Source: Ktedonobacterales bacterium
GTDB taxonomy: Bacteria; Chloroflexota; Ktedonobacteria; Ktedonobacterales; DATBGS01
DNA: 64,000 nucleotides
Direction: 5' to 3'
Assembly: GCA_036557285.1 (NCBI GenBank)
Contig: DATBHW010000076.1
Coordinates: 62,001 to 126,000 of the forward strand
Of the stretch, positions 39,080 to 56,073 are shown piece after piece. The notes beneath the pieces were generated by a model. It made no database searches. It saw only the letters and a program-made list of their open reading frames with translations, and was not told the origin of the DNA. Each line of letters opens with the position of its first letter. The stretch's first letter is position 1. Position numbers and translations under genes: made by a program.

Positions 39080-42000
39080 TCAGACGACACCCAATCTCTC
39101 GAAAATCTGCTGTGCTTCCTCCTGAGCTTTCCGGGCTAGTTGGGCATCGCCAGCGGCCCTCCAGGTGAGATGAATGCTTGCAATAGCGGTTAAGCAGCGC
39201 GCGGTCTCATACTCGTTTCCGGCAGAGCGGAAACTGGACAGGGCGTTTGCAAAATCGTTTAAGGCGTCCTGATGTTTTCCCTGGGCCGCCGCCAGTTCGC
39301 CATGCGCTTGATGCGCCATCGCCACCCACATGTGGCTGGCATACTTTGCTGCTGCCTGGTCTAGTTGGAGGCAAAAGCGCAGCGCCTCCTCCAGATTGCC
39401 CTGTGCTATGCGCAGGCTGATCGCCGCCGGAAGCAACAGCGAATAACAGGTGGAGCAATTCCCATGACGCTCGCTCATCGTCAGCCCCAGGTTCAGAGCC
39501 TGGTCGGCAGCCAGAAGGTCGCCCGCAGCCAGGCGGTTGTGCACGAGCGAGGCGTTCACACGGGTGAGGCAATGGGCGCGCAACAGCGCCCGTTTCGCAG
39601 CGTCCAGCCCCTCATAGAGCGTTACCAGTCCTTCGTCTATCCTGCCACTCCCCGTGAGGAGCGCCCCCAACCGCTGGCAAGCTATCGCCTCGCCAAAGGC
39701 GGCGCCGATCTGGCGGAAGAGCTGGATAGAATTGCGCAGCGCCGCCTCTGCGCTGGCCCAATGGCCTGATTGAAACTCAAGCGTTCCATCAAAACAGTGA
39801 CACAGCGCGACCGCCCGCGCCGCGCCCATACGTTGAGCTTGTGTGAGCATCGTCTGTACGGCTTGCTTTATTTCTTTATAGCCCTGATCGCCATACAAAT
39901 GATATTCCCATAGGCACAGGTGAATATCAAAAGCCTCGGTGACATCCAGTTCGGGGCCAGTCAAGCGAGCGCGCTGCTGCTCAAAGTCGAGACCGCGCTG
40001 CCATTCGCCCAGGGAATGACAGACTAACGCCAGCATTTCATAGGCGCGAGCGAGGGAAATTGGCTTCTTGAGGTGTTCCGCAATAGCCAGGCTTTTCTGC
40101 GCGGCCACCAGCGCCTGCTGAAACTCGCCTCGATGCCAGTAGAAGACGGCAAAGTGATAGAGGGCAAAGGCATACTCGTCAGCGTCCTCGTGTTCATCAA
40201 CCATTGCTATCGCCGCCTGTAAGTGGTTTTCCGCCTCTGCTATCTTTCCCGCGTTGAGCAGCAACACCGCCGCCATCTGATGCATACGTGCCTGGTCGCG
40301 GCCTGGCGGCTGCCAATCCGTCGTCGGCAGTGAGGTCAGCGCCTGCTCAAGACGGGTAACGGCGTGGGAGGTATCCCCCAGGATAAGGCCCCACCAGCCG
40401 AGCGCCTTCAGAACGTTCCAACGATGGGCCGGGTCATGTACTCCTAACTCGTCCATGAGCGCCAGCGCACGCTCGAAGCAGCTTACCGCGACCTCGAACG
40501 CGTAGAGGTCTGCTGCTTTCATCCCTGCCTGAAGGAGATATGGGATGGCATGATCACGACAGGCGCTGCGCTCATAGTGAAAGGCCAACGCTTCTACAGA
40601 GGGGAACAGCCCCTCAGACCGGGTTGCATACGCTGCTTCGATGGCCTCAGCGGTGCGTGTATGCAGCAGCACCCGCCGTTCGCGGGTAAGCGCATCATAG
40701 AGAGCACGACGTGTCAACGGATGGTGGAAGGAGTACCCGTCTACCGTCTCCTCAAGCAAGTGGCTATCAAGCGCGGCATCCAGGGCATCAAGCAACTCCC
40801 CTTCGGAGAGAGGAACCAGGCGGCGCAGGAGATCAAACTGAAATTCTCGTCCGACCACCGCAGCCGTCTTGAGCGCCGTTTCGATTGACGCCCCCAAACG
40901 GCTGATGCGCTCGCGCAGTAACCCTGCGAGTCCGCTCGGCACGGGGAGTTCTACGCCTGACTTCAGCCGCCACTGCCCTACACCTTCCTCCACCTGTCCC
41001 GACTTGAGCAGCATGCGGGTAATTTCCTCAACAAAGAACGGGTTTCCCTCGGTGATGGCAAACATGGCCTCCAGCAGAGACAGAGAAATCTGTCCGCCAA
41101 GAAGAAAAGCGATCATACTTGCCACACTGCTCTTTACCAGTGGCGCCAGGTTGAGCGTCTCGCTAAGATGTTCGTGATAAAGGGCGTTCAAGAGGGCGCC
41201 GAAGGGAGTTGTTACCTGAGCGCCTGTATCGCTTCGATAGGTCGCTAGCAGCATCACCGGAGCAGCCCGCGTTTGACGCGCCAGATAATGAAAGAGGTGA
41301 AGGCTCGCCTCATCAGCAGCATGGAGATCATCAATCAGCAGCACAACCGGACCTTGCGCTGCCAGTTTCATCAGGAACGTCAAGGCAGCCTGAAAGAGCG
41401 CCCACTGTTCTTGTTGGGGATCACTCACCCCCAACCGTTGAAAGTGCGTAATGGGATGCTCGCCAGGCCGATGATGGTGCTCAAGGAGATAACGGTCAAA
41501 GGCTTCAATGAACGGGTGGTAGGGCATCTGTCCTTCTTGTTCATAAGCCCGGCTGAAGAGTGTGGTGACGCCTGAGGAGGCGATGGTGCGCAGCGCCTCC
41601 AGAGCCAGGCGTGTCTTGCCTACCCCGGAGTCTCCTGCCAGGAGCAGCACCTGCTCGCGCGGCTTTGTGGCCGAGCGCAATCGTGTCAGGAGCAGATCGA
41701 GTTCGCTCTGGCGCCCGACCAACGGCAGCGCGTGTTCCCCTTCAGGTACGACGGATACAGGAGCTATCCAACCAGTATGGACGGGGAGGGGGGATGAGGC
41801 AAGCTCGCCACTGACAATGCGTGCGTAGAGTGCTGTTGTCTGTGGATCAGGCGACACTGCTAGTTCGGCGGAGAGGGCCTCCACACAGGTTTGATATTGG
41901 CGGAGCGCCTCATGGCGACGACCTGCCAGGGCGTAGAGTCCCATCAACTCACGATGTACCACCTCGTCAGCCGGGTCGCGCGTCAGCAATGGGGTCAGCA

Positions 42001-42535
42001 AGGTGATGGCGTCGCTGTATTCACGCGCCTCGCGGGCATAGGCGGCCAGGCCCAGGCGTACTTCGCGGTGCTGACGGGAGAGCGCGGCGCGTGGTATCAG
42101 CGTCCACTCGGCATAGCGGTCCTCAGGGAGAAAATCACCTGTATAGAGGCGCAAAGCAGCGATCAGGTCAGCCCGATCCCTGGAGTGGGCCAACGACTCG
42201 AATACGGCTGCATCTATCCACACCCCATCTGCCAGGACAAACACGCCATCGTGAAAGGTAAACAGAGCCTCAGCCGTCCCAGCGCCAAGCGCAGTATCAA
42301 GCGTCTGGCGAAGGGCATGGACCGTGCGGTACAGGTTGTTGGCGCCAGCAAGGGGATCCCCCTCCGGCCAGAGTAACTCGATGGCCTGCTCTTTCAAGAG
42401 CCGCTGCTCGGCTGCCAGCCGCTGAAGCAGTGTCGCTGCCTTCCGCCGTGTCCAGGCAGAGGCGGGCACACTTCGCTCCCCATGCGTTACCTCGAAGCGA
42501 CCGAGGAGGAAAATGCAAGGAGAAGGTGATGCCAC
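39080..42535 (-). CDS. SARP/BTAD-type transcriptional regulator with AAA ATPase and TPR domains
   Basis: The protein (about 1151 residues) starts with an OmpR-type winged helix (IFLLGRFEVTHGERSVPASAWTRRKAATLL...), followed by a bacterial transcriptional activator domain (to about 240), an ATPase domain with LLLAGDSGVGKTRLA near 300-310 and Walker-B-like VVLLIDDLHAADEAS, and a long TPR-like C-terminal half. This is the AfsR-like architecture. GTG 42535 is preferred because GGAGGATCACCTCAA precedes it and the winged helix begins just after it; a TTG at 42568 has no ribosome site. A strong terminator follows. The 11-bp repeat 80 bp downstream could be one of its targets. Confidence 0.88.
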   Translation of the reverse strand: MASPSPCIFLLGRFEVTHGERSVPASAWTRRKAATLLQRLAAEQRLLKEQAIELLWPEGDPLAGANNLYRTVHALRQTLDTALGAGTAEALFTFHDGVFVLADGVWIDAAVFESLAHSRDRADLIAALRLYTGDFLPEDRYAEWTLIPRAALSRQHREVRLGLAAYAREAREYSDAITLLTPLLTRDPADEVVHRELMGLYALAGRRHEALRQYQTCVEALSAELAVSPDPQTTALYARIVSGELASSPLPVHTGWIAPVSVVPEGEHALPLVGRQSELDLLLTRLRSATKPREQVLLLAGDSGVGKTRLALEALRTIASSGVTTLFSRAYEQEGQMPYHPFIEAFDRYLLEHHHRPGEHPITHFQRLGVSDPQQEQWALFQAALTFLMKLAAQGPVVLLIDDLHAADEASLHLFHYLARQTRAAPVMLLATYRSDTGAQVTTPFGALLNALYHEHLSETLNLAPLVKSSVASMIAFLLGGQISLSLLEAMFAITEGNPFFVEEITRMLLKSGQVEEGVGQWRLKSGVELPVPSGLAGLLRERISRLGASIETALKTAAVVGREFQFDLLRRLVPLSEGELLDALDAALDSHLLEETVDGYSFHHPLTRRALYDALTRERRVLLHTRTAEAIEAAYATRSEGLFPSVEALAFHYERSACRDHAIPYLLQAGMKAADLYAFEVAVSCFERALALMDELGVHDPAHRWNVLKALGWWGLILGDTSHAVTRLEQALTSLPTTDWQPPGRDQARMHQMAAVLLLNAGKIAEAENHLQAAIAMVDEHEDADEYAFALYHFAVFYWHRGEFQQALVAAQKSLAIAEHLKKPISLARAYEMLALVCHSLGEWQRGLDFEQQRARLTGPELDVTEAFDIHLCLWEYHLYGDQGYKEIKQAVQTMLTQAQRMGAARAVALCHCFDGTLEFQSGHWASAEAALRNSIQLFRQIGAAFGEAIACQRLGALLTGSGRIDEGLVTLYEGLDAAKRALLRAHCLTRVNASLVHNRLAAGDLLAADQALNLGLTMSERHGNCSTCYSLLLPAAISLRIAQGNLEEALRFCLQLDQAAAKYASHMWVAMAHQAHGELAAAQGKHQDALNDFANALSSFRSAGNEYETARCLTAIASIHLTWRAAGDAQLARKAQEEAQQIFERLGVV

Positions 42536-42729
42536 TTGAGGTGATCCTCCGGCAGGAAGCTGCACCAACCGTCATTTACGCCAGCAAAGACTGATAAGGG
42601 TAGTCATTCCACCATCAAGTATAGCATGGCGTGGAAACGCCCAGTGAGTGTTTCCAAATCGGCCTGTACTGCAAAGTCACACGTTACACCTGGCGACCCT
42701 GGCCTTGCCCCTGCTGAACTCCTCACCCA

Positions 42730-43809
42730 TCATTGCCAGCGAAAGGCCCGCCAGGTGAGAAGCAGGGAGCCGATAATCCAGGCCGCCAGAATCAGCACAC
42801 TGGTCTGGATGGCTGCCCAGCCTGCGCCGTTGTTGATGATCTGGCGCAGCGCGTCATCGAGATAGAAGAGCGGCATAGCGCGAATGACGCCTTGCAGGAA
42901 GCCTGTAATCTGGCTGACCGGGAAGTACGAGCCGCCCAGGAACATCATGGGGAAGCTGACCAGCAGAATAGCCGCGTTGGCCGCCTGCGATTTCTTGAAG
43001 AACCCTGCAACGGCAAAGCCAAAGGACAGCATCATCAACGCCCCCAACACAATGACCAATGCCAGTAAGCCAATATTACCGTAGATATGGACGTTGAAAA
43101 TCCAGACCGCCAGGGCGATCAGCACAACCTCCTGAATAACGGAGAGCAGCAGACGGGCCAGCAATTGTGCGCCGATCATGGCAATCGGAGCCAGCGGAGT
43201 AGCCGCCAGGCGCTTCGTGATGCCCTGCTCGCGCCAGAAGACCAGTTGAACGGCAACGCTCAGATTGGCCCACATCAGCAGCATCCCCACCATGCCGGGG
43301 GCGACAAAATCAATGGTGCGCAGGCTTTTCACCGAAACACCCTGCTCATCCAGCGTCACCAGGCCAGGCTGATTGGCAGCAGCGCGATTGATGCCATCAA
43401 CAATGGAACTCACCGCCAGTTTAGTAGAGGCGGCGGTGACGGGATCAGCCTGATTGTAAATGACCTTGAGATGCGCGCCGCCATGCAGCACCCCAGCGCC
43501 GAAGCCAGGAGCCATGATGATAACGGCGTCACGCTTGCCAGCGATCAGGGCTTGCTCTTCTCCAGCCTGGCTGCCTGTATACACCTGGAGTGAGTTGGTC
43601 TTCTGAAGCTCGCTGATGACCTGGGCTGAGGTGGGCGAATGGTCTTGATCGACCACGCCCAACTGGATGCGGGCCGCGCCGTTATCCCCGAACAAAAAGC
43701 CGAAAATCAGCACAGAGATGACCGACAAGCCCAGGCTGGAAATGATAACCGCACGCTGACGCAGCACCATCAGAAAGTTGGCGCGAAACAGCGAGAAAAA
43801 AGTAGCCAT
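42730..43809 (-). CDS. ABC-2 type transporter permease
   Basis: The 359-residue protein has an N-terminal helix (ANFLMVLRQRAVIISSLGLSVISVLIFGFLFG), an extracytoplasmic domain of about 140 residues and five more C-terminal helices, the usual ABC2_membrane layout. LLVSFPMMFLGGSYFPV is the family's typical late motif. It would export a drug, lipid or peptide, or act as a bacitracin-type defence pump. AAAGGGGAACAATC precedes the ATG. It lies 31 bp after its ATPase partner in one operon that diverges from the histidine kinase gene. Confidence 0.92.
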   Translation of the reverse strand: MATFFSLFRANFLMVLRQRAVIISSLGLSVISVLIFGFLFGDNGAARIQLGVVDQDHSPTSAQVISELQKTNSLQVYTGSQAGEEQALIAGKRDAVIIMAPGFGAGVLHGGAHLKVIYNQADPVTAASTKLAVSSIVDGINRAAANQPGLVTLDEQGVSVKSLRTIDFVAPGMVGMLLMWANLSVAVQLVFWREQGITKRLAATPLAPIAMIGAQLLARLLLSVIQEVVLIALAVWIFNVHIYGNIGLLALVIVLGALMMLSFGFAVAGFFKKSQAANAAILLVSFPMMFLGGSYFPVSQITGFLQGVIRAMPLFYLDDALRQIINNGAGWAAIQTSVLILAAWIIGSLLLTWRAFRWQ

Positions 43810-43840
43810 GATTGTTCCCCTTTTGACTATATGAATATCC

Positions 43841-44821
43841 CTACGCCTGCTCAGGACGAAGCTCGCGCCCGGTCAGATCGAGAAAAACGTCTTCCAGTGT
43901 GGGCGTGCGCACTTGCAGATCGGTCAGGGCAATACCTCGCTGCGTGGCATAATCCAGCAGCGCCAGCAGGGTTGGCTCCATCTGGCTGGTCTGAAGGGCA
44001 AAGCGCCCATTGGCCGCGCGCACTTTGCCCACGCCTGGCAGTTCGCCTAGTTCAGCGCCGAGAGCCGCGCCGTCCAGGTGGCAATCAATCGTCGCCCGCG
44101 CGCCCAGGCGTCCAATCAATCCGGCGGCGGTATCCAGCGCGATGATCTGGCCCTCGTCCATAATGGCGATCCGGTCACAGAGGGCTTGAGCCTCATCCAT
44201 ATAGTGAGTCGTAATGATGATCGTCTTCCCACGTTCGCGCAGGTTGAGAACGGTATCCCACAACATGCGGCGGCTCTGAGGGTCCAGGCCAGCGGTAGGC
44301 TCATCCAGAAACACGACCTGCGGGTCGTTCACCAGCGCCAGCGCCAGCGCCAGCCGTTGCCACTGGCCGCCCGAAAGATCGTCTGGAGCGGCTCTGGCTT
44401 TCTCTTCCAGTGCCACCAGGCGCAGCAGGTCTTTGGCCCGCTGCGCCCTGGGATAGAGCGAGCCGAAGAACTGAACGGTTTCCTGCACCGTCAATTCTGG
44501 AAAGAGCGAGGTTGCCTGCAATTGCACGCCAATGATGCGCTGCACAGCGCGCTTCTGGCGGCGGATGTCCAGGCCCGCGATCACCGCCGTACCCTCATCA
44601 GGCGCGCGGATACCTTCGATCATTTCCAGCGTAGTTGTTTTGCCTGCCCCATTTGGGCCAAGCAGCCCAAAGATTTCACCGCGCCGCACACCGAAAGAAA
44701 CACCTCTGACAACGGCTTTCTGTTGATAACGCTTGACCAGATTGCGCACATCTACCATTAGTTCACCAACAGCCGATGTTTCGGCAGCCGATTCCGCTGC
44801 TGCTGCCGTTTCTTGCGACAT
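43841..44821 (-). CDS. ABC transporter ATP-binding protein (CcmA/DrrA type)
   Basis: The 326-residue ATPase has Walker A GPNGAGKTT near 55, Q-loop VQLQATSLF, the signature LSGGQWQRLALAL near 155, Walker B VVFLDEPTAGLDP and the H-loop IIITTHYMDEA. The C-terminal 80 residues (DUF4162-like) are typical of exporters of the DrrA group. It energises the ABC-2 permease encoded next. AAAGGGGCATGAG precedes the ATG. Confidence 0.95.
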   Translation of the reverse strand: MSQETAAAAESAAETSAVGELMVDVRNLVKRYQQKAVVRGVSFGVRRGEIFGLLGPNGAGKTTTLEMIEGIRAPDEGTAVIAGLDIRRQKRAVQRIIGVQLQATSLFPELTVQETVQFFGSLYPRAQRAKDLLRLVALEEKARAAPDDLSGGQWQRLALALALVNDPQVVFLDEPTAGLDPQSRRMLWDTVLNLRERGKTIIITTHYMDEAQALCDRIAIMDEGQIIALDTAAGLIGRLGARATIDCHLDGAALGAELGELPGVGKVRAANGRFALQTSQMEPTLLALLDYATQRGIALTDLQVRTPTLEDVFLDLTGRELRPEQA

Positions 44822-44961
44822 CTCATGCCCCTTTCTGAAAACGGAGGGCGCAGCCCTTCGTGCTTTCTATAGCCGAGTATAGCTGCCCTCTCGTCCAGGC
44901 AGATGTGCGCCTGGTCATCATTCAGGTCATCTCTTTTTGGCAACCCTATTCCCTTCCCCCA

Positions 44962-45001
44962 TGACTCGAGTCACGGGTCATGGTTCCGCGCCTATGACTC
45001 G
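44962..45001. promoter_or_regulatory. TGACTCGAGTCA palindrome plus phased half-site in the divergent control region
   Basis: TGACTCGAGTCA at 44962-44973 is a perfect 12-bp palindrome. The half-site TGACTCG recurs at 44995-45001, 33 bp (three helical turns) from the first. Both lie between the divergent ABC operon and kinase operon. The inner ACTCGAGT fits the ACT-n-AGT pattern reported for VraR/LiaR-type response regulators, relatives of the regulator encoded here. Confidence 0.5.
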
Positions 45002-45051
45002 CCGCTTCAGGCTCTATCTTTCTTCACATCTCAACCGCGCCGCCTTTGGGC

Positions 45052-45057
45052 TATAAT
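45052..45057 (+). promoter_or_regulatory. -10 element of the histidine kinase promoter
   Basis: A perfect TATAAT lies 62 bp upstream of the kinase start. The -35 region at the right distance reads TCTCAA and is poor, which suggests activation, perhaps by a regulator bound at 44962-45001. Confidence 0.5.
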
Positions 45058-45118
45058 AAGCGTGGATGAGGCAGGTACGTGTAGAACGCTTTCCCTCCTC
45101 TCAGTAAGGAGCTTGCTT

Positions 45119-46453
45119 ATGTCCAGCCAGCCAGCCCATAGCGTTTCAGTCCCTTCTGATAAACTGATGAAACTGGTGAACATCACAGCATTTGGCACGC
45201 TTGTAATCGGGTACTTGCTCGCCATTCTGCTGGCAACTCCCCTGACGTTGGGCAACTTTCTCGCTTTCACCGCCTTACAGCTTCTCTACTGCGCCGCATT
45301 CTGGCTGCTGCTGCGGGGGTATAAAACCGATCTGCGTTTCTCGCTGCCCGTCTACGCGCTCATCCTCTCAGCTTTGACAGTGAGCAGTGGCCTGCTGAGC
45401 CGTACCGGCATAGATTGGGATTGGCTCATCTATATGGTGACGGCTTCTATCTTTTTCTCCTTGTTTTCCGCACGCCCGGCCATCACCGCTGCTCTGCTTC
45501 TTTACGGAGCGATCATTCTCAACCTGGCTTTCCTCGATGATTGGCGCTGGTCACTCAACCTGCTGGCAAGTCTGGCTAACCTGCTCGCCGCTCTTAGTTT
45601 CGTAAGCGGGTTCTCGCTGCTGATGAATCTGCTGCTGGCGCAAAAGGAACGCGCCGAGCGGCTGCTGCAAGAGGTGGAACTGTCCAGAGGCCAACTTGAA
45701 GCGGCGCACGCGCAACTGCGCAGCTACTCTACACAGGTGGAGGAATTGACCATTGCCCGCGAGCGCACCCGCGTTGCCCGCGAGATTCACGATACGCTGG
45801 GCCATTACCTGACGATCCTGAATGTACAGCTTGAGACTATCAGCAAGCTGGTGAAGCGCGATCCATCCCGTCTGGAGGCCGAAATCGCTGAAGCCCGCCA
45901 TGTAGCCGCGCAATCCATGCAGGAAGTGCGCAACGCTGTGGCGACGCTCCGTCCGGCTGGAATAGCCACGCTCACTCTGGCCCAGGCACTGACCCAGTTG
46001 GGGAACGAGTTTAAGCACGCCGCGCCGGGGACAGCGTTAACGCTTGATCTTGAGGCTGAACTGCCGCCGCTCTCGCCGGATGTTCAGTTGACGCTCTATC
46101 GAGCAGCACAGGAAGCACTCACAAACGTGCGCAAGCACGCGCAGGCCAGCAAAGCACTGGTGCGCCTGCGCTATGAGGATGGCTGGCTGGAACTGCTGGC
46201 GCTGGATAATGGACGTGGCCCTCTCGCCGTTCCTGACAATGCTGGCGACGCTGAGCAGGGCAGCGCCGCGCAGAAATCAGGTGGATTTGGCTTGCCAGGT
46301 CTCTGTGAGCGCGTTGAACTCCTGGGCGGCCAGGTGACATACGGCCCGGCGACACCGGCTGGCTATCGGGTCACGGTCAGGATACAGGTATTATCAACGC
46401 AGAGCGCGAACACCTCGGCGCGCCTGGAGTCCATGCAAGGAGCGCGAGGATGA
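45119..46453 (+). CDS. membrane sensor histidine kinase (DesK/LiaS-like)
   Basis: The 444-residue protein has about five to six transmembrane helices in its first 170 residues with almost no extracytoplasmic domain, a coiled-coil linker, HisKA_3 with VAREIHDTLGHYLTILNVQLE (phospho-His near 225) and HATPase (AAQEALTNVRKHAQAS, DNGRG, GGFGLPGLCERVE). This intramembrane-sensing design is typical of kinases that respond to membrane or cell-wall stress. AAGGAG lies eight bases upstream of ATG 45119; the frame is open to 44903 but without a site. It overlaps the regulator gene by four bases and diverges from an ABC-2 exporter, its likely target. Confidence 0.92.
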   Translation: MSSQPAHSVSVPSDKLMKLVNITAFGTLVIGYLLAILLATPLTLGNFLAFTALQLLYCAAFWLLLRGYKTDLRFSLPVYALILSALTVSSGLLSRTGIDWDWLIYMVTASIFFSLFSARPAITAALLLYGAIILNLAFLDDWRWSLNLLASLANLLAALSFVSGFSLLMNLLLAQKERAERLLQEVELSRGQLEAAHAQLRSYSTQVEELTIARERTRVAREIHDTLGHYLTILNVQLETISKLVKRDPSRLEAEIAEARHVAAQSMQEVRNAVATLRPAGIATLTLAQALTQLGNEFKHAAPGTALTLDLEAELPPLSPDVQLTLYRAAQEALTNVRKHAQASKALVRLRYEDGWLELLALDNGRGPLAVPDNAGDAEQGSAAQKSGGFGLPGLCERVELLGGQVTYGPATPAGYRVTVRIQVLSTQSANTSARLESMQGARG

Positions 46454-47148
46454 ATCAACGGCTGCGTGTGCTGATTGTAGACGACCAGGCGCTGCTGCGC
46501 GAAGGCTTTCGCAAGCTCCTCGAATTAGAGCCAGATATAGAAGTGGTGGGTATGGCTGGCGATGGCGAGAGCGCGCTGGCCTTTGTCGAACGGTTGCACA
46601 CCAGCCAGACACCGCCAGATGTCATCCTGATGGATATTCGCATGCCGCGCATGGATGGCATCGCGGCCATTCACGCCCTGAAGGCACGCTGGCCTGAAAC
46701 CCATATCGTGATCCTGACAACCTTTGATGATGACGACCTGATCTATCAGGGTTTGCGCGCGGGCGCATTGGGTTATCTGCTCAAGGACAGCAGTTCCGAA
46801 CAGCTCATCAACGCCATTCGCGCCGCCGCGCGTGGTGAGGTACTGCTCCAGCCACATATCGCGGGCAAAGTCTTTGCGGCGCTGGCCCAGCCAGCGGCGC
46901 CCAAGTCACCGCCCTCCGCCGCCACTTCGGCGGCGCTGGCTTATGTCGAAGACCTCACGGAACGCGAGCGCGAGATTCTCAAGCTGGTTGCCACAGGCGC
47001 GTCTAACCGCGAGATTGGCGAAGCTCTGTTTATCACCGAGGGTACGGTTAAAAACCATATGACAAATATTCTCTCGAAACTTGGGCTGAGAGATCGCACC
47101 CAGGCAGCCCTCTACGCGCGCGAGCATCTTCCGCCGCATTATTCCTAG
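46450..47148 (+). CDS. NarL/LiaR-family response regulator
   Basis: The 232-residue protein has a receiver domain (VLIVDDQALLREGF, phospho-acceptor Asp in VILMDIRMPRMDG, Lys in YLLKDSS) and a LuxR-type helix-turn-helix (LTEREREILKLVATGASNREIGEALFITEGTVKNHMTNILSKLGLRDR). An Ala/Pro linker at about 143-160 is slightly longer than usual. Its ATG overlaps the kinase stop (ATGA). It is likely to control the divergent exporter and its own operon. Confidence 0.95.
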   Translation: MNQRLRVLIVDDQALLREGFRKLLELEPDIEVVGMAGDGESALAFVERLHTSQTPPDVILMDIRMPRMDGIAAIHALKARWPETHIVILTTFDDDDLIYQGLRAGALGYLLKDSSSEQLINAIRAAARGEVLLQPHIAGKVFAALAQPAAPKSPPSAATSAALAYVEDLTEREREILKLVATGASNREIGEALFITEGTVKNHMTNILSKLGLRDRTQAALYAREHLPPHYS

Positions 47149-47290
47149 CTTTGTGGTAACAGGAGCCTCCAAAGAACTCCTGGTATTGACGTTATCTCTC
47201 CAGGACTGTGCTACAGCTTCACTCCCTTCCGATTGACAGGTGAGCAAGAAAGGATCTGATTGCTAGACTGGAAAGAAACTAACAAAACTC

Positions 47291-47319
47291 TTGACAATGT
47301 ACCCGGTTGCTGCTATACT
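47291..47319 (+). promoter_or_regulatory. strong sigma-70 promoter with extended -10
   Basis: TTGACA at 47291-47296, a 17-base spacer, and TATACT at 47314-47319 preceded by TGC (TGn extension). It would give a leader of about 110 bases before the small peptide ORF at 47435. The leader contains AAAGGAGGAG at 47365-47374 with no start codon at a usable distance. Confidence 0.75.
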
Positions 47320-47434
47320 TCCTCTAGATTAAAAGGCTGCTTTGTTCTCTTGAGATTATTGGAGAAAGGAGGAGCGCGCCAGGCAGGACCAAGACTTCAG
47401 GATAGTGAGACTTACACGGAAGGATATCGTTGAT

Positions 47435-47590
47435 ATGCGCCACAAGCACTCGGATAGGATTGCTGTACCTCTGCTACCCCTCGTTGCCCTGTTCGCCATA
47501 AGCATCGCCCTTCTCCCCCTGCATACAGCACACGCCGCCCCGCAACGCCCATATGACCTGTGTCTATACTACTATCACGACATCATCTAA
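47435..47590 (+). CDS. small secreted peptide precursor (51 aa)
   Basis: ATG 47435, with AAGGAT about ten bases upstream, opens a 51-codon frame. The product has a basic N-terminus (MRHKHSDR), a hydrophobic core of about 20 residues and a signal-peptidase-I-like site TAHA/APQ, leaving a 17-residue tail APQRPYDLCLYYYHDII. That tail is rich in Tyr with one Cys. The frame is the first ORF behind the strong promoter at 47291-47319 and ends 29 bp before the next secreted protein. It could be a secreted signal or antimicrobial-type peptide, or a decayed protein N-terminus. The size makes the call uncertain. Confidence 0.45.
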   Translation: MRHKHSDRIAVPLLPLVALFAISIALLPLHTAHAAPQRPYDLCLYYYHDII

Positions 47591-47619
47591 TACCCCAGCG
47601 TGCAGAAAGGAGGCAAGAT

Positions 47620-48213
47620 GTGATTTTTATTCGACGCCGCTATCTTGTGATCGGATTAGCCGCCCTGCTCCTGGCACTGGCCGGGGGTACCACCTTTGCC
47701 GCGACAGGGCTAGTAGGAATTATCAATCCTACTCCCATCGTTACCCGCTATACTCCCCAACCTTCTGGGATGGGCGCAACGCAAACCACCGATGAGGGGA
47801 TGGCAGTCACGCTGGTCCAGATCATCAAGAACGGGCCACGCTGGCTGTTCCATTTCAAGATCGAGAATACCGCGAAGACGGCTCTCACCATCCGAGGCAC
47901 GAGCGATGTGCATCAATTCATCGTCAGTGGCAACAGACAGGCTGCGCCACCAAACAATATTGGGATAGCCCAACTCGGCTCGCCATCGGCCAGCGAGATC
48001 GCAATGAACTATTCCGACCTGGCGACCACGCTCCCCTCCGGTGGCGGCGCTGAAGGCTGGCTGGCAGTCGATACCACGAATCTGGACTTTACGCCAACAA
48101 CAGTCCTCTATCGCTACAAGGCCGTCCCTACGACTGCGTGCGCTAACCTTCACGACCAATCAACCTGCTACCCGGATACTCTTTATCAGGCGCTTATCTG
48201 GTATCCTATCTGA
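47620..48213 (+). CDS. hypothetical secreted or membrane-anchored protein
   Basis: A GTG at 47620 with AAAGGAGG five to six bases upstream starts a 197-residue protein; the frame is open further upstream but that part lacks a ribosome site. It begins MIFIRRRYLVIGLAALLLALAGGTTFA, a signal peptide or anchor, with ATGLVG after the likely cleavage site. The exported part has two predicted beta regions (MAVTLVQIIKNGPRWLFHFKIENTAKTALTIRG and EGWLAVDTTNLDFTPTTVLYRYKAV) like a small Ig-type domain, and two Cys near the end (TTACANLHDQSTCYP) that could pair. I recognise no family. It shares a transcript with the small peptide ORF. Confidence 0.7.
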   Translation: MIFIRRRYLVIGLAALLLALAGGTTFAATGLVGIINPTPIVTRYTPQPSGMGATQTTDEGMAVTLVQIIKNGPRWLFHFKIENTAKTALTIRGTSDVHQFIVSGNRQAAPPNNIGIAQLGSPSASEIAMNYSDLATTLPSGGGAEGWLAVDTTNLDFTPTTVLYRYKAVPTTACANLHDQSTCYPDTLYQALIWYPI

Positions 48214-48349
48214 CGGAGAGCCAGCGCGGGCGCTGGGGCGAGTGTGACTGGAGGCTCAATCCTTCGGCGCACCGCTAGAGTACCGAATCTGCGTGTACCG
48301 CCAGGCTCCGTGCTGGCGAATCGGTGGGCTGCTGGAACATGGGGCTTCA

Positions 48350-48640
48350 GAGGGCAAGGTTTGTCCTGGCACACCGTTGCGCCGCCAGGGAGGGACGCGC
48401 GAGCGACCAACGGGAGCGAGAATGCCGAGGCAGAGCAGTGGCCCGCGACCGAGCGCAGCGAGGGAGAGTGCGGGAACCCAGTTCCCGCAAGGGCCGCTCC
48501 CCGCAGGGGGAGGCAAGCGGCAGAGACGCGCGAGCGACCAACGGGAGCGAGAATGGCCGCGCCCAGCGCGGTCAAGCGGCTCTGGCGAAGCCCTTCCCGA
48601 AGGGACGTCGGCGGTACCGGCAGCGTCGAGCACGATGTAG
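48350..48640. repeat. degenerate, tandemly duplicated repeat-family member (R5)
   Basis: The conserved core GCGAGCGACCAACGGGAGCG lies twice, within 48393-48420 and 48525-48551, 132 bp apart and in the same orientation, surrounded by related fragments (GCCGCTCCCCGCAGGGGGAGGCAAGCGG, abbreviated here to GCCGCTCCCC...GGCAAGCGG). No clear terminal repeats or flanking duplication are visible. It fills most of the 498-bp gap between the secreted protein and the glycosidase gene; no gene in the gap can be supported. Confidence 0.65.
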
Positions 48641-48644
48641 CGCC

Positions 48645-48700
48645 AAAACGATGCGGCCAGGCGCTTGAAGGAATGATCCTCTCAGCGCCTGGCCGCATCG
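48645..48700 (-). terminator. intrinsic terminator of the oligosaccharide operon
   Basis: CGATGCGGCCAGGCGCT (48649-48665) and AGCGCCTGGCCGCATCG (48684-48700) form a perfect 17-bp stem with an 18-base loop, 11 bp after the stop at 48712. On the minus strand it is followed by TTTT. This is the strongest terminator in the window. Confidence 0.9.
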
Positions 48701-48711
48701 CAAGGAAGGGG

Positions 48712-50037
48712 TCAGAGCAGGGGTATGGCGAGCAACTGGGCAGCAAACAAGATCAACGCCGCAGCACTCCATGCCTGGACGGCACAGGCATGTGGATACT
48801 CTGCCAGCGCCTCTGAACCGTTCAGATTCGGCGCATGCCCTCCCGAAGCAGGCAAAACACAATACAGTTCCACCGGGGCGCCAAAATGCTCGATAGCAGC
48901 TATGCCCCGCCGCGCAATCAGCCGAGCATCGTCGTATTTGCCCATGCGCCAGAGCGCCACAGCAGTGATAGCATTATCGAACGGCCAGACGCTGCCGCGA
49001 TGATAAGACATGGGATCAAAAGCATAGGAGCGCGACGACAGCGTGCGCAGCCCCCAGGTGGTCAGCAGATCGTCACACAGCAACCGATTCGCCAGCGACT
49101 CAGCCGCCGTCGTATCGCGTATTCCGCCACACCAGAGGACATGCCCGGCGTTGGATGATACCAGCGGAACAGGCCGTTTCTCTCGCGTCAAAGCCATCGC
49201 CAGGCAATCTTCTTCAGGCAGCCAGAACTGCATCAGGCGCTCTTCAATCTGCGCAATGCGCGCAGACATCCTGGCTTGCAGCGCCTGCTCCACTCCTCGC
49301 GCCCGAAAGATGGCGAGCGCGCGGCGAAAGGCGGCAACCGCATACCCCTGCACCTCCACCCACGCGACGGGCGGCTCCGGCCAGCTTCCATCTTCCTGTA
49401 TCAGCGAATCGCTGCTATCTTTCCAGACCTGATTACGCAGCCCCAGGCCGCGCGGCTGGCGCGGCTGCGCCTCGATCAATCCATCCCCATCAACATCGCC
49501 GTACTCCAATGCCCAATGCGCAGCGGCCAGCACATGCTCCCACAGGCTTGCTATAAGGTCGCGTCCCTCTGGCGCCTGTTCCCAGACCATGCCAACAGCC
49601 ATGAGATAGAGGTAGGTACTATCTACCGCGCCATAGTAGCGGCCATCATATAACGGCCAGTGGCTCCCGGCATCAGCGCCCTGGAGACGGGCCGGGACTT
49701 CCGGCCAGCATTCATGAACGATCTTGCCCGGCTGCTCCTCATTCTCGTCACGCTCCTGCGTTCCCTGCGTCGCGGAGAGCTTGCGCAGATTGCTGACGGC
49801 AAGATTCGCCGCCCAGTGGCCCAGGGATTTGTCCCCAGGCCGCAGCCGCGCCGCCTCCAGAACTAGCATCACCGTCAAGAGCGTATCGCGCCCAAACAGC
49901 GCGTGGTAACGTCCTGCCGCGCTGCTGGCGCGCAAGCCAATCGGTGTCTGCAACTCATCCAACCAGGCCCGCCCGCGATGCAACCACTCCTCAAGGGGCT
50001 GATCGGCGTGGGGCGAGCGTGCCTCAAAAGTGGTCAT
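48712..50037 (-). CDS. amylo-alpha-1,6-glucosidase-like glycosidase (six-hairpin)
   Basis: The 441-residue protein resembles the C-terminal glucosidase half of glycogen-debranching enzymes: YHALFGRDTLLTVMLVLEAARL near 45, DGDGLIEAQPRQPRGLGLRNQVWKDSSDS near 190 and FDPMSYHRGSVWPFDNAITAVALW near 350, the usual acidic-residue motifs of this alpha/alpha-barrel group. There is no signal peptide, so it acts on imported oligosaccharides in the cytoplasm. AAAGGGTAGCGAAAG precedes the ATG. It is the last gene of the LacI-led operon. Confidence 0.87.
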   Translation of the reverse strand: MTTFEARSPHADQPLEEWLHRGRAWLDELQTPIGLRASSAAGRYHALFGRDTLLTVMLVLEAARLRPGDKSLGHWAANLAVSNLRKLSATQGTQERDENEEQPGKIVHECWPEVPARLQGADAGSHWPLYDGRYYGAVDSTYLYLMAVGMVWEQAPEGRDLIASLWEHVLAAAHWALEYGDVDGDGLIEAQPRQPRGLGLRNQVWKDSSDSLIQEDGSWPEPPVAWVEVQGYAVAAFRRALAIFRARGVEQALQARMSARIAQIEERLMQFWLPEEDCLAMALTREKRPVPLVSSNAGHVLWCGGIRDTTAAESLANRLLCDDLLTTWGLRTLSSRSYAFDPMSYHRGSVWPFDNAITAVALWRMGKYDDARLIARRGIAAIEHFGAPVELYCVLPASGGHAPNLNGSEALAEYPHACAVQAWSAAALILFAAQLLAIPLL

Positions 50038-50090
50038 CTTTCGCTACCCTTTGCTAACCTTGCCAGTACGGTTGGTTCTCACGATGAGAG

Positions 50091-50987
50091 CTATCGCCCG
50101 GCCAATCCAGAGGTCGAAATCCCCCTGATAAAATATCGCTGGAAGAAAAAGAAGACGAAGACCAGCGGAAGGAGATTGATTGCAGCGCCTGCCAGCAGCA
50201 GATTGTAGGCAATGTAGTTCTGGCGGCCAAAGAAGGCCAGCCCCACTGTCAACGTGTAGTTCTGCTGGTGGGACTGAACGATCAGCGGCCAGAGGAAATC
50301 GTTCCACGCGCCCTGGAAGGAGAGAATCGCCACTGCTGTCATCGCCGGACGCGCCAGCGGCAAAATGATTTGCCAGAAGATGCGCAAGCGCGAAGCGCCA
50401 TCAATCATCGCCGACTCTTCTAATTCCCTTGGAAGGCTCTTGAGAAATTGGGTCATGAGAAAGACCATCGTTGGCTGGACCATTGCTGGAACAATCAGCG
50501 CGGCGAGATTATCGGTCAGTCCCAGCGAATTTGCCACCAGGAACTTGGGAATCAGGATAAGCTGCGAGGGAATCATGAGCACCGCCAGCGTCAGCGCAAA
50601 GAGGACGTTCTTGCCAAAGAACTCCATGCGGCCAAACGCATAGCCTGCCATCGAAGCCAGAAGGACGTTGAGCGCCGCTGTTCCCCCCGCGTAAATGAGC
50701 GAGTTCACAATATAGCGCGGGAACAGATTGGCTCCGCTAAAAATCTCCTGGTAATTGGCAAACGTGACCGGATGTGGAATCAGGCTGGGCGATAATATGT
50801 CTGCATAGGTCTTGAAGGACGAAATCAACGCGAACAGAAATGGCCCCAGCGAAAACAAGCTGTAGAAGATCAAGATCGCATACAGGAGAACATGCCAGGT
50901 CCGCTGCGGCGCTGGAGGCTTTTTATCTTCGCTGGCGAACGTTCGCGTCCTCGCTTGAGCAGCGGGCGGGCTGATGGTTGTCGCCAT
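50091..50987 (-). CDS. sugar ABC transporter permease (MalG type)
   Basis: The 298-residue CUT1-family permease has an N-terminal helix (WHVLLYAILIFYSLFSLGPFLFALISSF), five more helices and the EAA loop LPRELEESAMIDGASRLRIFWQIILPLARPA, which contacts the ATPase. AGCAGGCGCCAC precedes the ATG. It follows the MalF-type gene by 17 bp. Confidence 0.95.
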   Translation of the reverse strand: MATTISPPAAQARTRTFASEDKKPPAPQRTWHVLLYAILIFYSLFSLGPFLFALISSFKTYADILSPSLIPHPVTFANYQEIFSGANLFPRYIVNSLIYAGGTAALNVLLASMAGYAFGRMEFFGKNVLFALTLAVLMIPSQLILIPKFLVANSLGLTDNLAALIVPAMVQPTMVFLMTQFLKSLPRELEESAMIDGASRLRIFWQIILPLARPAMTAVAILSFQGAWNDFLWPLIVQSHQQNYTLTVGLAFFGRQNYIAYNLLLAGAAINLLPLVFVFFFFQRYFIRGISTSGLAGR

Positions 50988-51004
50988 GTGGCGCCTGCTT
51001 TCTG

Positions 51005-51955
51005 CTAATACTGGATATTCGTATCAATAAAACGCCGCTGAAGGATGGTAAAGAGAAAAATCACCGCAAACAACACCACCGCCTCAGCGCAAGCAAGGCC
51101 CATCCTTGGGTTAGAGCCAGCAAACGCCGTATTGTAAATCTCCAGCACAGGGGTAAGCAAGCTCTTGAGCGGGCCGCCATCGGCCCCGCCCATGATATAC
51201 GCCTGATCGAACATCTGGAAAGACCCAATCGTACCCAGCGCCGTGACCAGAAATGTTGTCGGGCGCAGCAGCGGTATCGTAATCTTGCGCAGAATGTCCC
51301 ACGAACTGGCCCCATCCACTCGCGCGGCCTCATAGAGGTGGTCGGGAATATCCTGCAAGGCCGCCAGATAGAGCAGCATAAAGGTTGGCGCTGTCGTCCA
51401 GACATTCAGCAGCATGACCGAAGGGAGCGCGGTAGTTGGGTCGTAGAGCCAGGCCCGCCCTTGAATGCCCACCAGCGAGAGGAGATAATTGATGACGCCC
51501 TGCGAGTTATACAGCCAGATGAAGATCAACGAAATAGCAACCGAAGAAGTCAACGACGGAAGAAAAAATGACGTTCTGAAAATGCTGCGACCACGTACCT
51601 TCTGGTTGAGCAGCAGCGCCAGCGCCAGCGCCAGAATGGTCTGGAGGATGACCACCCCAACGGTGTAAAAGAGAATGTTCTTCAGGCTGATGAGAAAATC
51701 GCCGTTGTGCGTCAAATCGTACCAGATAAGCTGATAATTCTTCGTGCCGTAAAACTCTGGCTCGGTGAAGCCGAAGTCTACGAAAAAGAAACTGAGATAA
51801 AAAGCGTAGACGGTGGCAATCAGCGTAAACGTGGCGAGGATCAACAGATAAGGACTGAGAAACCCGTAAGCGGCAAGCGTCTCGCGCAGCTTGCGGCTCA
51901 TGCCTTTCCCGCGCTCGCCTTTGACGGCTCCTGGCACACGCAATGCCCCCTGCAT
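51005..51955 (-). CDS. sugar ABC transporter permease (MalF type)
   Basis: The 316-residue CUT1-family permease has six helices and the EAA loop IPDHLYEAARVDGASSWDILRKITIPLLRP. ATG 51955 is chosen because AAAGGAGGACCGAAC precedes it; the frame open to 52018 has no site. It lies between the SBP and MalG-type genes. No ATPase is encoded in the operon; CUT1 systems often borrow a shared MsmK/MsiK-like ATPase. Confidence 0.94.
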   Translation of the reverse strand: MQGALRVPGAVKGERGKGMSRKLRETLAAYGFLSPYLLILATFTLIATVYAFYLSFFFVDFGFTEPEFYGTKNYQLIWYDLTHNGDFLISLKNILFYTVGVVILQTILALALALLLNQKVRGRSIFRTSFFLPSLTSSVAISLIFIWLYNSQGVINYLLSLVGIQGRAWLYDPTTALPSVMLLNVWTTAPTFMLLYLAALQDIPDHLYEAARVDGASSWDILRKITIPLLRPTTFLVTALGTIGSFQMFDQAYIMGGADGGPLKSLLTPVLEIYNTAFAGSNPRMGLACAEAVVLFAVIFLFTILQRRFIDTNIQY

Positions 51956-52071
51956 GTTCGGTCCTCCTTTGTAGGTTGGCGAGAGCAGCGGATTGCGCCG
52001 CTGCTCTCGCCAGCACATCAGGTTACTGCTCTCGCATAGACTGGTTGATACCGGGCTGTGGTATCAGCGAA

Positions 52072-53433
52072 CTATGGACCAACGTTTTGCTGAATCCAGG
52101 TATTCACGTTCTGCGCCGCCGTATTGAAGGCATCCTGCACCGATGATCTGCCAAGCATGACGGCTAGCAGCGCGTTGGCAACCTCGGAATGGACCTTGCT
52201 GTCCGCCGCGCCATAGAAGTCAGCATGCCCGTAATCCGCGCCCTGCTGCAACACCGCCACGCCGGGGTTTTGCTGGAAGTAGGGGTCTTTCTCCAGCGAT
52301 TTGACCGTCGGCAGCGCGAACCCATCGTGCAGCACGTCGCCCTGATGCCCGGCGCCTGTCAGGAACTGAATGAGCTTCCAGGCCGCATCAGGATGCGCCG
52401 TCCCGGAATACGCTGCCCAGGCGTTGGTATAGAGCAGGTTGCCGCGCTTGCCATTGGGAGCCGAGGGAACCGGCGCAATGCCATACTGGACATCGGGGAA
52501 CGTCTGGCTCATGAAGGGGATCATCCAGCCGCCCTCAAAGGTCATTGCCACCTGCTGCTTGCCAAATGCATCACCATCCCAGCCCGCGCCAACATCACCA
52601 GGCTGCACGCCAGTCTTGTTCAGTTGGAACGACGTATAGAATGTCGCCGCGTCAATGCCCTGCTGGCTGGCGAATGCCGCCTGCTTTCCATCGTTGGACA
52701 GCATCTGGCCGCCATTGGCAAAGAGGAACGCGCCCCAGCGAGAAGTATCGGCTGGCAGCGCAATGCCATGCGTGTTGCCCTGGGTCAGCGTCTTGGCAGC
52801 GTTCTGCAAATCGCTCCACGTCCAGTTAGAAGGATCGCCCAGGCCCGCCTGCTGGAACATCGTCTTATTATAGAACAGGCCCAACGAGTTCCAGTCCTTG
52901 GCAATGCCGTAAACTGTGCCATCGGCGCAGTCAAACGGCTGCATCAGCGAGGCATAGAAATCAGAGGCGGAAACGTTATCCCGCGCCATATAAGGGCTGA
53001 GGTTCAACAGCTTGCCCGCTTTGATGTACTCCTGGGCCATACCGGGCTGGAGGTAGAAGACATCAGGCACGTTGTTACTGGCAACGTTCGCGCGCATCTT
53101 GGTTGGGTAATCACCGGGGATCACTTGCCAGGTAACTTTGATGTTCGAGTTCTGCTGCATGAACTGATTCAGCGCCTGCTGAACCAGCGCATCCTCCGCC
53201 GGGCTGGACGACCACCCTGCAACGGTCAGATTGATCTGTCCACTCTCAGAGTTGGCAGGCGAGGTATTGGTGTTTTTCGGGCAGGCATTCAGAGCATTGG
53301 CCGGACCTTTTCCGCCGCTGCCTGTACCCGAAGGCCCCCCACCGCCGCCACATGCTGCCAGCAGAACGACGAGGCTGAGCATGCCAATCATGCTCCATAC
53401 ACGCCAGAAACGCTTTTTCCGAGGCAGTCTCAT
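52072..53433 (-). CDS. sugar ABC substrate-binding lipoprotein
   Basis: The 453-residue SBP_bac_1-type protein has a lipoprotein signal (MLSLVVLLAACGG, Cys28) and a Gly-rich linker. The mature part shows INLTVAGWSSSPAEDALVQQALNQF and GDYPTKMRANVASNNVPDVFYL, and KQQVAMTFEGGWMIP, common in oligosaccharide-binding proteins. AAAGGAGCAAAACAC precedes the ATG. It captures a sugar for the MalF/MalG-type permeases; the flanking glycosidases point to a gluco-oligosaccharide. Confidence 0.94.
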   Translation of the reverse strand: MRLPRKKRFWRVWSMIGMLSLVVLLAACGGGGGPSGTGSGGKGPANALNACPKNTNTSPANSESGQINLTVAGWSSSPAEDALVQQALNQFMQQNSNIKVTWQVIPGDYPTKMRANVASNNVPDVFYLQPGMAQEYIKAGKLLNLSPYMARDNVSASDFYASLMQPFDCADGTVYGIAKDWNSLGLFYNKTMFQQAGLGDPSNWTWSDLQNAAKTLTQGNTHGIALPADTSRWGAFLFANGGQMLSNDGKQAAFASQQGIDAATFYTSFQLNKTGVQPGDVGAGWDGDAFGKQQVAMTFEGGWMIPFMSQTFPDVQYGIAPVPSAPNGKRGNLLYTNAWAAYSGTAHPDAAWKLIQFLTGAGHQGDVLHDGFALPTVKSLEKDPYFQQNPGVAVLQQGADYGHADFYGAADSKVHSEVANALLAVMLGRSSVQDAFNTAAQNVNTWIQQNVGP

Positions 53434-53610
53434 GTGTTTTGCTCCTTTGTCTGGTGCGCCGCCAGCATCGCCGGGCGCTCCTGCATATGCATGTCCTTGG
53501 GATGAGTGCTAGAGCCTTGATCTTTTCGCGTGCATCACCTCTCTTCACCTCGCCCGCCTGGAACGCAGGACACCGGGCGAGCCGCTGTTGCTGGGACGAC
53601 ATCACAACCA

Positions 53611-56073
53611 TCAGGAATATCTACACTGCCCATCCGCAGACCAGGAAACGCGCAGGTCATAATGAGTTGTTCTGCGCCTGGTTGGGGCGAGCCAGGTCTC
53701 CCGTCCTTCATATTCCGCCAGCCGCGCTGGCCGCAGGGCTACCGCTTCGCCATTCAACGTGGCATTGATGACAGAGGCTCCAACGGGTAAGACCGCGCCT
53801 AGAGAAACCTCCCAATCCGCCGCTCCAATCTCCAGGCGCACACGCAAGCCATCTGGCTCGGCCACAAGCTCAACATCCACCTCTGTATCCCCCAGAGGGA
53901 CGGCGCTCAAACGCGCTGAGGGCCAGGCGTCCGGCAGTTGTGGTACGCACATGAGATGCCGATTCGCCACATCCGGGCGCAGCCCAAAGAAGTAATGGAC
54001 AACGGGCCAGACAATACCGTAGTTCGACCAGAGCTGCAAGAAGCAGCCGCCATCGGCCCCAGCGCCCTCGTCGGTGGCATATTCGCTCAGCGTCCCTGGC
54101 ATCTGCGCGCCAAACGCCGCCATCATCCGCTGCATTGTCACCAGCGCCTCATTCGCCCGCCCATAACGCGCTTCCCCAACGGCAAGCGCGCCGGTTGGCA
54201 GGGTCATGACGCGCCGGTTCGCTGCGGCATTCAAGACCACGCCATAGGTCTCTGTCCATTCCGGCGTCTCCAAACGATCAAGCAGTTCTGCGGCCTGCGC
54301 TCGATCTGGCAGCCCGGCATCTGCCGCCAGCGCCTGCGTCATATGAAACAGCAGCCAGGGTCGGCGCAGATGCGGATCGGCCTCTGGCTGGCGATCTTCT
54401 GCCAGCGCCCGACATAGTAATGCGCTGCTGCTGCGCGCTGATGAATCAAGATTCGGCAGCGACTCAAGCCGCTGCTGAAGTGTTTCTAATTCAATGCGCG
54501 AGGCGCGCACGTCGCCAAACAGCCGTTCTGTAGGCAGCAGCCAATCTTCGCGCAGATGCCGACGCAAAGCGTCTGCCTGTGCATGCAGCCGTTTCGCCGT
54601 CTCGCTCTGGCTCAGTTCATCGGCAAGTGATCCGAGCAGGTCAAGCGCCTCCACCAGATAGGCAGCCACGTCAAGCGCCTGGAAGCCAGCAGCCATTTCA
54701 GGCGTTTCAACAATGCTGGAACCCTGCGGCGCGCGCTCGCCTGGCTCCAGGCACGCGCCTAGCGCCCACTGTTCGATGCCCTGTAAACAGAACGGGAAGA
54801 GTTCTTCAAGCAGAGCGCGATTACCAGTCCAGCGGTAGGTATGGTAGAGGGCGCGCACGAAGAGCGGCGTCTCAACCAGATTGCCGCGATGCGCCACCAG
54901 CCCATGCGAAACAATCTCATGCGCCACCGCGCCGCTCTTGTTTGCCTGCTGACTGAGCGCGGCAAGCGTGCGCAGGCTGGCGTCCGCTTCGTCGGCCTGC
55001 CCGGCGGGCAGCATGGGTAGTACGCCATAGGCCAGGTCACAGCCAAACCACCAGGGAAACTCCGGCAACCCAGCCATCGCCGCGCGGCCCACGCCAGGCA
55101 CGTCCAGCATCAACATCGAAGCCCAGGCTTTGGCCCAGGCAAACACAGCATTGAGATGCGCGTCGGGGGATTGAAGGAGACAGCGCGTAAAGGGCGCGTG
55201 GAAACGCTCTTTTGCTGCGCACTCCGCCTGCCTCAGCGAACGAGCGACGTCAGCGGTATCATCTGCGCTGCCTGAACTGGCAGCATTGCTGCCGGGCCAC
55301 GCCAGCCTGGCGAAAACCGACGACGCAGAGGTAGTATCATTGGCAGCGCCAGCGATCACAAAACGCATCTGCTTCGGATGCGTCGGCATCATCCGACAGC
55401 GATATGAGAGCGACGCGCCAATGCCGCGACCGCTGGTGCGTTCCGGCCCCCACACGTCGGCGCCAGCTCTCCAGGCTATCGGCAGTTGTGTCGCGCCAAC
55501 GCAGACCTCCCACCTGGGGTGCAGCACGTCAAGCAAGAGAACAGCGCCTGATGACGTATCATAGATCGCGGCATCACCCCCATCCGCCCAACCCAGACGC
55601 TCTTCAGCCAGCCAGGCTCCATGCAAGTCGCTGCGCATCGCCAGGCAACAAGTCAGGGTGAGCGTGTCTTTCCAGGTGGCAGTGGGCTGCCGACTCAGAG
55701 TGACATCCACGATAAGGGCAGGCTCATCAGGCACAATCCATTCGCGTCGCTCCACTGCAATGCCCAGGGCTGGCAGCGCGTAGCTGAGCGTCACGCCATC
55801 CGTAGACATCCGCCAGGTATCAGGAGCCGTGAGCCACTGCACAGTCTGCCCACGCGCCCGCAGCCCCAGCCAGTATCCATCCAGCAGCTTGAGCGGCGGC
55901 GACCAGACACCGCCCATCTCCTGGGGCTGATGCGACCCGTGATCGGGAAATCCCCCGGCCAGCGTCGCCACGCTGTACAGGCGTGTGCCGCAGACAGCGT
56001 ACCAGCGCCGACTATCAACGGGCGTCTCAAGATATGGCTGAGCGGCGTCTCCGCAAAGGGACGTACCGGCCAT
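53611..56073 (-). CDS. six-hairpin glycosidase (debranching/trehalase-like)
   Basis: The 820-residue protein has an N-terminal beta-sandwich of about 280 residues, then an alpha/alpha-barrel domain (GLPEFPWWFGCDLAYGVLPML near 360, VETPLFVRALYHTYRWTGN near 430, GTLSEYATDEGAGADGGCFLQLWSNYGIVWPV near 715) and a small C-terminal beta domain. The Asp in GCDLAYG and the Glu in GTLSEYA are candidate catalytic acids. It resembles debranching-type alpha-glycosidases rather than a specific GH family that I can name. AGGAGATACT precedes ATG 56073; the longer frame from 56166 lacks a site. It follows LacI by 110 bp and precedes the SBP gene. Confidence 0.8.
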   Translation of the reverse strand: MAGTSLCGDAAQPYLETPVDSRRWYAVCGTRLYSVATLAGGFPDHGSHQPQEMGGVWSPPLKLLDGYWLGLRARGQTVQWLTAPDTWRMSTDGVTLSYALPALGIAVERREWIVPDEPALIVDVTLSRQPTATWKDTLTLTCCLAMRSDLHGAWLAEERLGWADGGDAAIYDTSSGAVLLLDVLHPRWEVCVGATQLPIAWRAGADVWGPERTSGRGIGASLSYRCRMMPTHPKQMRFVIAGAANDTTSASSVFARLAWPGSNAASSGSADDTADVARSLRQAECAAKERFHAPFTRCLLQSPDAHLNAVFAWAKAWASMLMLDVPGVGRAAMAGLPEFPWWFGCDLAYGVLPMLPAGQADEADASLRTLAALSQQANKSGAVAHEIVSHGLVAHRGNLVETPLFVRALYHTYRWTGNRALLEELFPFCLQGIEQWALGACLEPGERAPQGSSIVETPEMAAGFQALDVAAYLVEALDLLGSLADELSQSETAKRLHAQADALRRHLREDWLLPTERLFGDVRASRIELETLQQRLESLPNLDSSARSSSALLCRALAEDRQPEADPHLRRPWLLFHMTQALAADAGLPDRAQAAELLDRLETPEWTETYGVVLNAAANRRVMTLPTGALAVGEARYGRANEALVTMQRMMAAFGAQMPGTLSEYATDEGAGADGGCFLQLWSNYGIVWPVVHYFFGLRPDVANRHLMCVPQLPDAWPSARLSAVPLGDTEVDVELVAEPDGLRVRLEIGAADWEVSLGAVLPVGASVINATLNGEAVALRPARLAEYEGRETWLAPTRRRTTHYDLRVSWSADGQCRYS

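What the first reader, a model, noticed from the sequence alone, without database searches (positions are those of the whole stretch)
47291..48213. Strong promoter, orphan Shine-Dalgarno and a 51-residue secreted peptide next to a two-component system
A consensus promoter with an extended -10 drives a 110-base leader containing AAAGGAGGAG with no start codon in reach, then a 51-codon ORF with a signal peptide and the 17-residue tail APQRPYDLCLYYYHDII, then a secreted beta-rich protein. The whole unit follows the membrane kinase/regulator pair. It could encode a secreted signal, an immunity or effector pair, or an envelope-stress output.
Basis: partly seen in the sequence, partly recalled or inferred. 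Interest (0 to 1): 0.6.

Follow-up and report, generated by a model that had tools for sequence, protein, structure and literature searches.

The report
Promoter, stub ORF and secreted-protein gene
A strong, ordinary promoter in a soil bacterium (order Ktedonobacterales) drives a rare secreted-protein gene preceded by a short signal-peptide ORF that is most likely the leftover of a lost partner gene; the neighbouring sensor-kinase system appears to be an unrelated neighbour.

Summary
The sequence observations hold. TTGACA-17-TATACT with extended -10 (TGC) at 47291-47319 is the only 11/12 promoter match in the 64 kb. The AAAGGAGGAG at 47365 has no ATG/GTG/TTG in reach. The 51-codon signal-peptide ORF and the secreted beta-rich protein are both present.

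The interpretation mostly fails. The kinase/regulator plus a divergent ABC transporter is a module conserved in relatives without the secreted genes. No relative of the secreted protein whose neighbourhood I could read sits next to a kinase. The CATGAC/GTCATG half-sites found upstream of the kinase in several genomes are absent from this promoter region.

The secreted protein (47620-48213) belongs to a small family found only in Ktedonobacterales (5 loci, 4 genomes). In three of the other four loci a second secreted, six-cysteine protein occupies the slot just upstream: intact once, fused once, decayed to a C-terminal relic once. In the window that slot holds the 51-codon ORF. The best reading is a truncated stub of that partner, with the orphan Shine-Dalgarno possibly its old ribosome site. 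Sequence similarity does not prove this (not significant), and a real small secreted peptide stays possible.

The parts
47291..47319 (+). sigma-70-type promoter TTGACA-17-TATACT with extended -10 (TGC)
   Evidence: 11/12, the best in the window; TTGACA-17-TAnnnT also lies upstream of the gene-1 slot in L061 and L062
47326..47434 (+). about 109-nt untranslated leader, not structured
   Evidence: fold z-scores +1.2 and +3.6, less stable than shuffles; no Rfam match in this stretch
47363..47374 (+). orphan Shine-Dalgarno AGAAAGGAGGAG (AAAGGAGGAG at 47365) without start codon in reach; in-frame AGG at 47381, reading frame open from 47354
   Evidence: the same AGAAAGGAGG recurs before the next gene
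47435..47590 (+). 51-codon ORF: signal peptide plus 17-residue tail APQRPYDLCLYYYHDII; probable stub of the upstream partner gene ('gene 1')
   Evidence: position equals the gene-1 slot in L060, L061, L062
47606..47613 (+). Shine-Dalgarno AAAGGAGG of the secreted-protein gene
47620..48213 (+). secreted beta-rich protein, 197 aa, GTG start, C-terminal signature AC.N..D.STC....YQALIW ('gene 2')
   Evidence: family of 5 loci in Ktedonobacterales; AF2/Foldseek
45120..46453 (+). HisKA_3 membrane histidine kinase (neighbour, not part of the unit)
   Evidence: orthologues
46450..47148 (+). NarL/LuxR-type response regulator (neighbour, not part of the unit)
42730..44821 (-). ABC-2 permease and DrrA-like ATPase, divergent from the kinase; conserved partner of the TCS (neighbour, not part of the unit)

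Best explanation
This is an ordinary operon for an extracytoplasmic protein of a lineage-restricted family, read from its own strong housekeeping-type promoter and independent of the preceding two-component system. The family's typical arrangement is gene 1 (secreted, about 160 aa, six cysteines) followed by gene 2 (secreted, Ig/DUF4352-like beta protein), sometimes fused. In the window gene 2 is intact, and gene 1 is most likely reduced to a stub: its signal peptide and a few residues survive as the 51-codon ORF. The orphan Shine-Dalgarno would be the former ribosome site of gene 1, whose start codon has been lost. If the stub is still translated, from the weaker site before 47435, it only yields an exported 17-residue remnant, and gene 2 is translated from its own strong site. 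Shown: promoter-like sequence, ORFs, family, the gene-1/gene-2 linkage elsewhere, and lack of conserved TCS linkage. Inferred: that the 51-codon ORF descends from gene 1, that the orphan site was its start, and that gene 2 works outside the cell (envelope binding or protection).
For: Gene 2 has relatives only in Ktedonobacterales: 5 loci in 4 of 47 genomes of the order, none convincing among 400 genomes drawn across the phylum. Gene 1 lies directly upstream of the paralogue in the same genome (L060:4650-5168), is fused in frame in G034 (L062), and survives as a C-terminal relic just upstream in G006, where it aligns with score 82 and no shuffle in 5000 reached it. Gene 1 therefore decays. The window ORF occupies the same slot, with a signal peptide ending HT..AHA as in L002/L060 and a C..YY start. 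The orphan SD lies about 26 codons plus a normal spacer before the hydrophobic core, as in the paralogue, where SD plus ATG lie about 25 codons before it. A TTGACA-17-TAnnnT promoter also precedes the slot in L061 and L062. The TCS with its ABC transporter is conserved without these genes. CATGAC/GTCATG half-sites occur 2-4 times upstream of the kinase in the window, L056, L057 and L059, and 0 times in 47149-47434.
Against: Similarity of the 51 residues to gene 1 is not significant: other signal peptides score as high, and the tail gives p 0.17-0.9 against N-termini and 0.4-0.85 against C-termini. The stretch between orphan SD and ATG shows no coding signal. Only three other loci carry gene 1 or a trace of it. 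No close relative of this genome is held, so decay cannot be watched directly.
Confidence: 0.5

Rival explanations
1. The 51-codon ORF is a genuine small secreted peptide gene; the 17-residue tail is released by signal peptidase and acts outside (signal, antimicrobial or partner of gene 2).
For: A signal-peptide-like ORF of this length arises in only 0.15% of shuffles; strong promoter; clean AHA-A cleavage site; directly upstream of a secreted protein.
Against: No relative at any useful E-value in 61 genomes. Neither the paralogous locus in the same genome nor the other loci carry such a peptide. No peptide receptor, exporter or processing protease next to it. Codon use is uninformative.
Confidence: 0.25
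2. The ORF is a leader or translational-coupling ORF whose translation only serves to load ribosomes for gene 2; the peptide itself has no role.
For: Only about 30 nt separate its stop from the gene-2 start.
Against: Gene 2 has its own strong SD; a leader ORF has no need of a signal peptide; the leader RNA is unstructured, with no attenuator.
Confidence: 0.15
3. The unit is an envelope-stress output of the adjacent kinase/regulator pair.
For: It is adjacent and on the same strand, 142 bp downstream of the regulator; the kinase matches LiaS-type sensor models in its catalytic domains, below their cut-offs.
Against: No conserved linkage either way; putative regulator half-sites absent; the promoter already has a consensus -35 and an extended -10, so it should not need an activator.
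Confidence: 0.1

Closest known systems
DUF4352 / YjhA-like extracellular Ig-fold proteins (PDB 3cfu, 4les)
   Same: gene 2 is exported and predicted to be all-beta; best Foldseek match is 3cfu with E 5e-4
   Different: no Pfam match to DUF4352 for the gene-2 proteins tested; TM-scores below 0.5; its own C-terminal two-cysteine signature
LnrJK-LnrLMN type two-component system with ABC transporter (B. subtilis; PMC7472640)
   Same: HisKA_3 kinase, NarL/LuxR regulator and a drug-type ABC transporter side by side
   Different: concerns the neighbours, not the finding; no equivalent of the secreted unit; divergent arrangement
Short exported peptide precursors such as Bacillus Phr peptides (own knowledge)
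   Same: signal peptide plus short C-terminal tail
   Different: no cognate Rap/RNPP receptor nearby, no relatives, gene slot shared with a larger protein

Membership tests
Ktedonobacterales gene-2 secreted family (defined here) | full-length similarity and C-terminal AC.N..D.STC....Y.A[LI][VI]W signature | tested here: met
   pairwise E 1e-21 to 2e-15 against the relatives; invariant C174, N176, D179, C183, W194
Ktedonobacterales gene-2 secreted family (defined here) | gene 1 immediately upstream or fused | tested here: inconclusive
   present in L060, L062, relic in L061; absent in L003; in the window only the 51-codon ORF, no significant similarity
DUF4352 | match to the Pfam model | tested here: not met
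   not listed at E up to 1
DUF4352 | same Ig-like fold as 3cfu/4les (TM-score of at least 0.5) | tested here: inconclusive
   TM 0.33-0.49 on a model with mean pLDDT only 65
Output operon of the adjacent TCS | shared operator with the TCS/ABC promoter region | tested here: not met
   candidate half-sites CATGAC/GTCATG 2 at the kinase, 0 at 47149-47434 (the operator itself is inferred)
Output operon of the adjacent TCS | conserved gene neighbourhood | tested here: not met
Phr/quorum peptide precursor | cognate receptor next to it | tested here: not met
   ORF list of 42000-54000 and Pfam on the neighbours show none
Phr/quorum peptide precursor | processed and imported mature peptide | not testable with these tools
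   needs mass spectrometry and import assays

The most novel reading that the evidence does not exclude
The 51-codon ORF is a working gene for a Tyr-rich 17-residue exported peptide that arose by reducing a larger six-cysteine secreted partner, and it still acts together with gene 2 outside the cell.
Probability: 0.1. Interest if true: 0.45.

Novelty: new member of a known kind. Interest (0 to 1): 0.18.

Why it matters
Little, beyond annotation. It defines a small, apparently undescribed pair of secreted proteins in Ktedonobacterales (separate, fused or half-decayed) and shows that closeness to a sensor-kinase operon is here not evidence of regulation. If the short ORF were functional, it would be a case of a secreted peptide evolving by gene reduction.

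Tried and rejected
Riboswitch or attenuator in the leader: no Rfam family in the leader, and folding weaker than shuffles. Orphan SD serving an alternative ATG/GTG/TTG: none in reach; the in-frame GTG at 47405 is about 30 nt away. Hits to the 51-residue ORF in other genomes are E 0.01 or worse and look like generic signal peptides. Proof that the ORF descends from gene 1 by local alignment of either end failed. A palindrome TGACTCGAGTCA upstream of the kinase has no second copy in the window. Pfam, NCBIfam and PDB sequence searches gave no family for gene 1 or gene 2. The gene-1 fold prediction was unusable (mean pLDDT 40). Paper search found nothing on small secreted proteins of Ktedonobacter.

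Full report
Setting. The window lies in contig C76 of an 82-contig, 5.1-Mb genome (97% complete). The relatives that share its order are Ktedonobacterales by record title. It is the only genome held of its family, which limits comparison.

Observation. The promoter is the only 11/12 match in the window. AAAGGAGGAG occurs once. The frame of the 51-codon ORF is open from 47354, through the orphan site, and carries an AGG codon at 47381, 8 nt after AAAGGAGG, where a start would be expected. An ORF of this length is common in shuffles (36%), but one with a signal-peptide-like start is not (0.15%).

The secreted protein. Gene 2 has one paralogue in the same genome and single relatives in three others, all about 31% identical, and no match above cut-off in Pfam or NCBIfam. 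A 400-genome sample of the phylum adds nothing convincing. The AlphaFold model (mean pLDDT 65, core strands 85-90) has YjhA 3cfu as its best match and 4les among the closest solved structures. From my own knowledge that these are DUF4352-type extracellular proteins, I read gene 2 as an envelope-associated Ig-like protein; this is inference.

The upstream slot. In the paralogous locus (L060) a secreted protein of about 172 aa (183 from the first possible start) with six cysteines in the mature part precedes gene 2. In G034 the same domain is fused to gene 2 in one 321-aa protein. In G006 only its C-terminal end remains (about 35-40 residues), without a start codon, right behind a promoter-like sequence. 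In G024 (L003) the slot is empty. So gene 1 is a partner that is lost more than once. The 51-codon ORF sits in this slot, 30 nt before gene 2. Its signal peptide and the spacing from the Shine-Dalgarno to the hydrophobic core resemble gene 1 of L060, but the sequence match itself is not significant. I therefore hold the stub reading at about one half.

The two-component system. Kinase, regulator and ABC transporter recur together, in the same divergent order, in G018 and G009, and the kinase/regulator pair without the transporter in G044 and G022; no relatives of the secreted genes are attached. CATGAC/GTCATG half-sites occur 31 times in 64 kb, but twice in the 299 bp before the window's kinase and 3-4 times in the corresponding stretches of L056, L059 and L057. 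None lies in 47149-47434. This is a candidate operator only, but it speaks against the secreted unit being in the regulon. In B. subtilis the comparable LnrJK system has its transporter operon as sole target (PMC7472640).

Verdict. It is a lineage-restricted secreted-protein operon with a probable gene remnant in front, next to an unrelated TCS/ABC module.

Noticed in passing
48290-48640: Intergenic DNA made of a genome-wide interspersed repeat (core ..GGGACGCGCGAGCGACCAACGGGAGCGAGAATG..); 48 matches listed in this genome, two copies here.
   Followed up: partly
48649-48700: Long near-perfect inverted repeat (GATGCGGCCAGGCGCT/AGCGCCTGGCCGCATC, -44.8 kcal/mol) between convergent genes, without T-run; possibly a two-way terminator.
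   Followed up: partly
44959-44983: Candidate operator of the NarL-type regulator (CATGACTCGAGTCACGGGTCATG) between kinase and ABC genes; half-sites also in L056, L057, L059.
   Followed up: partly
L062:5251-6216: Gene 1 and gene 2 fused into one 321-aa secreted protein, suggesting the two products interact.
   Followed up: yes
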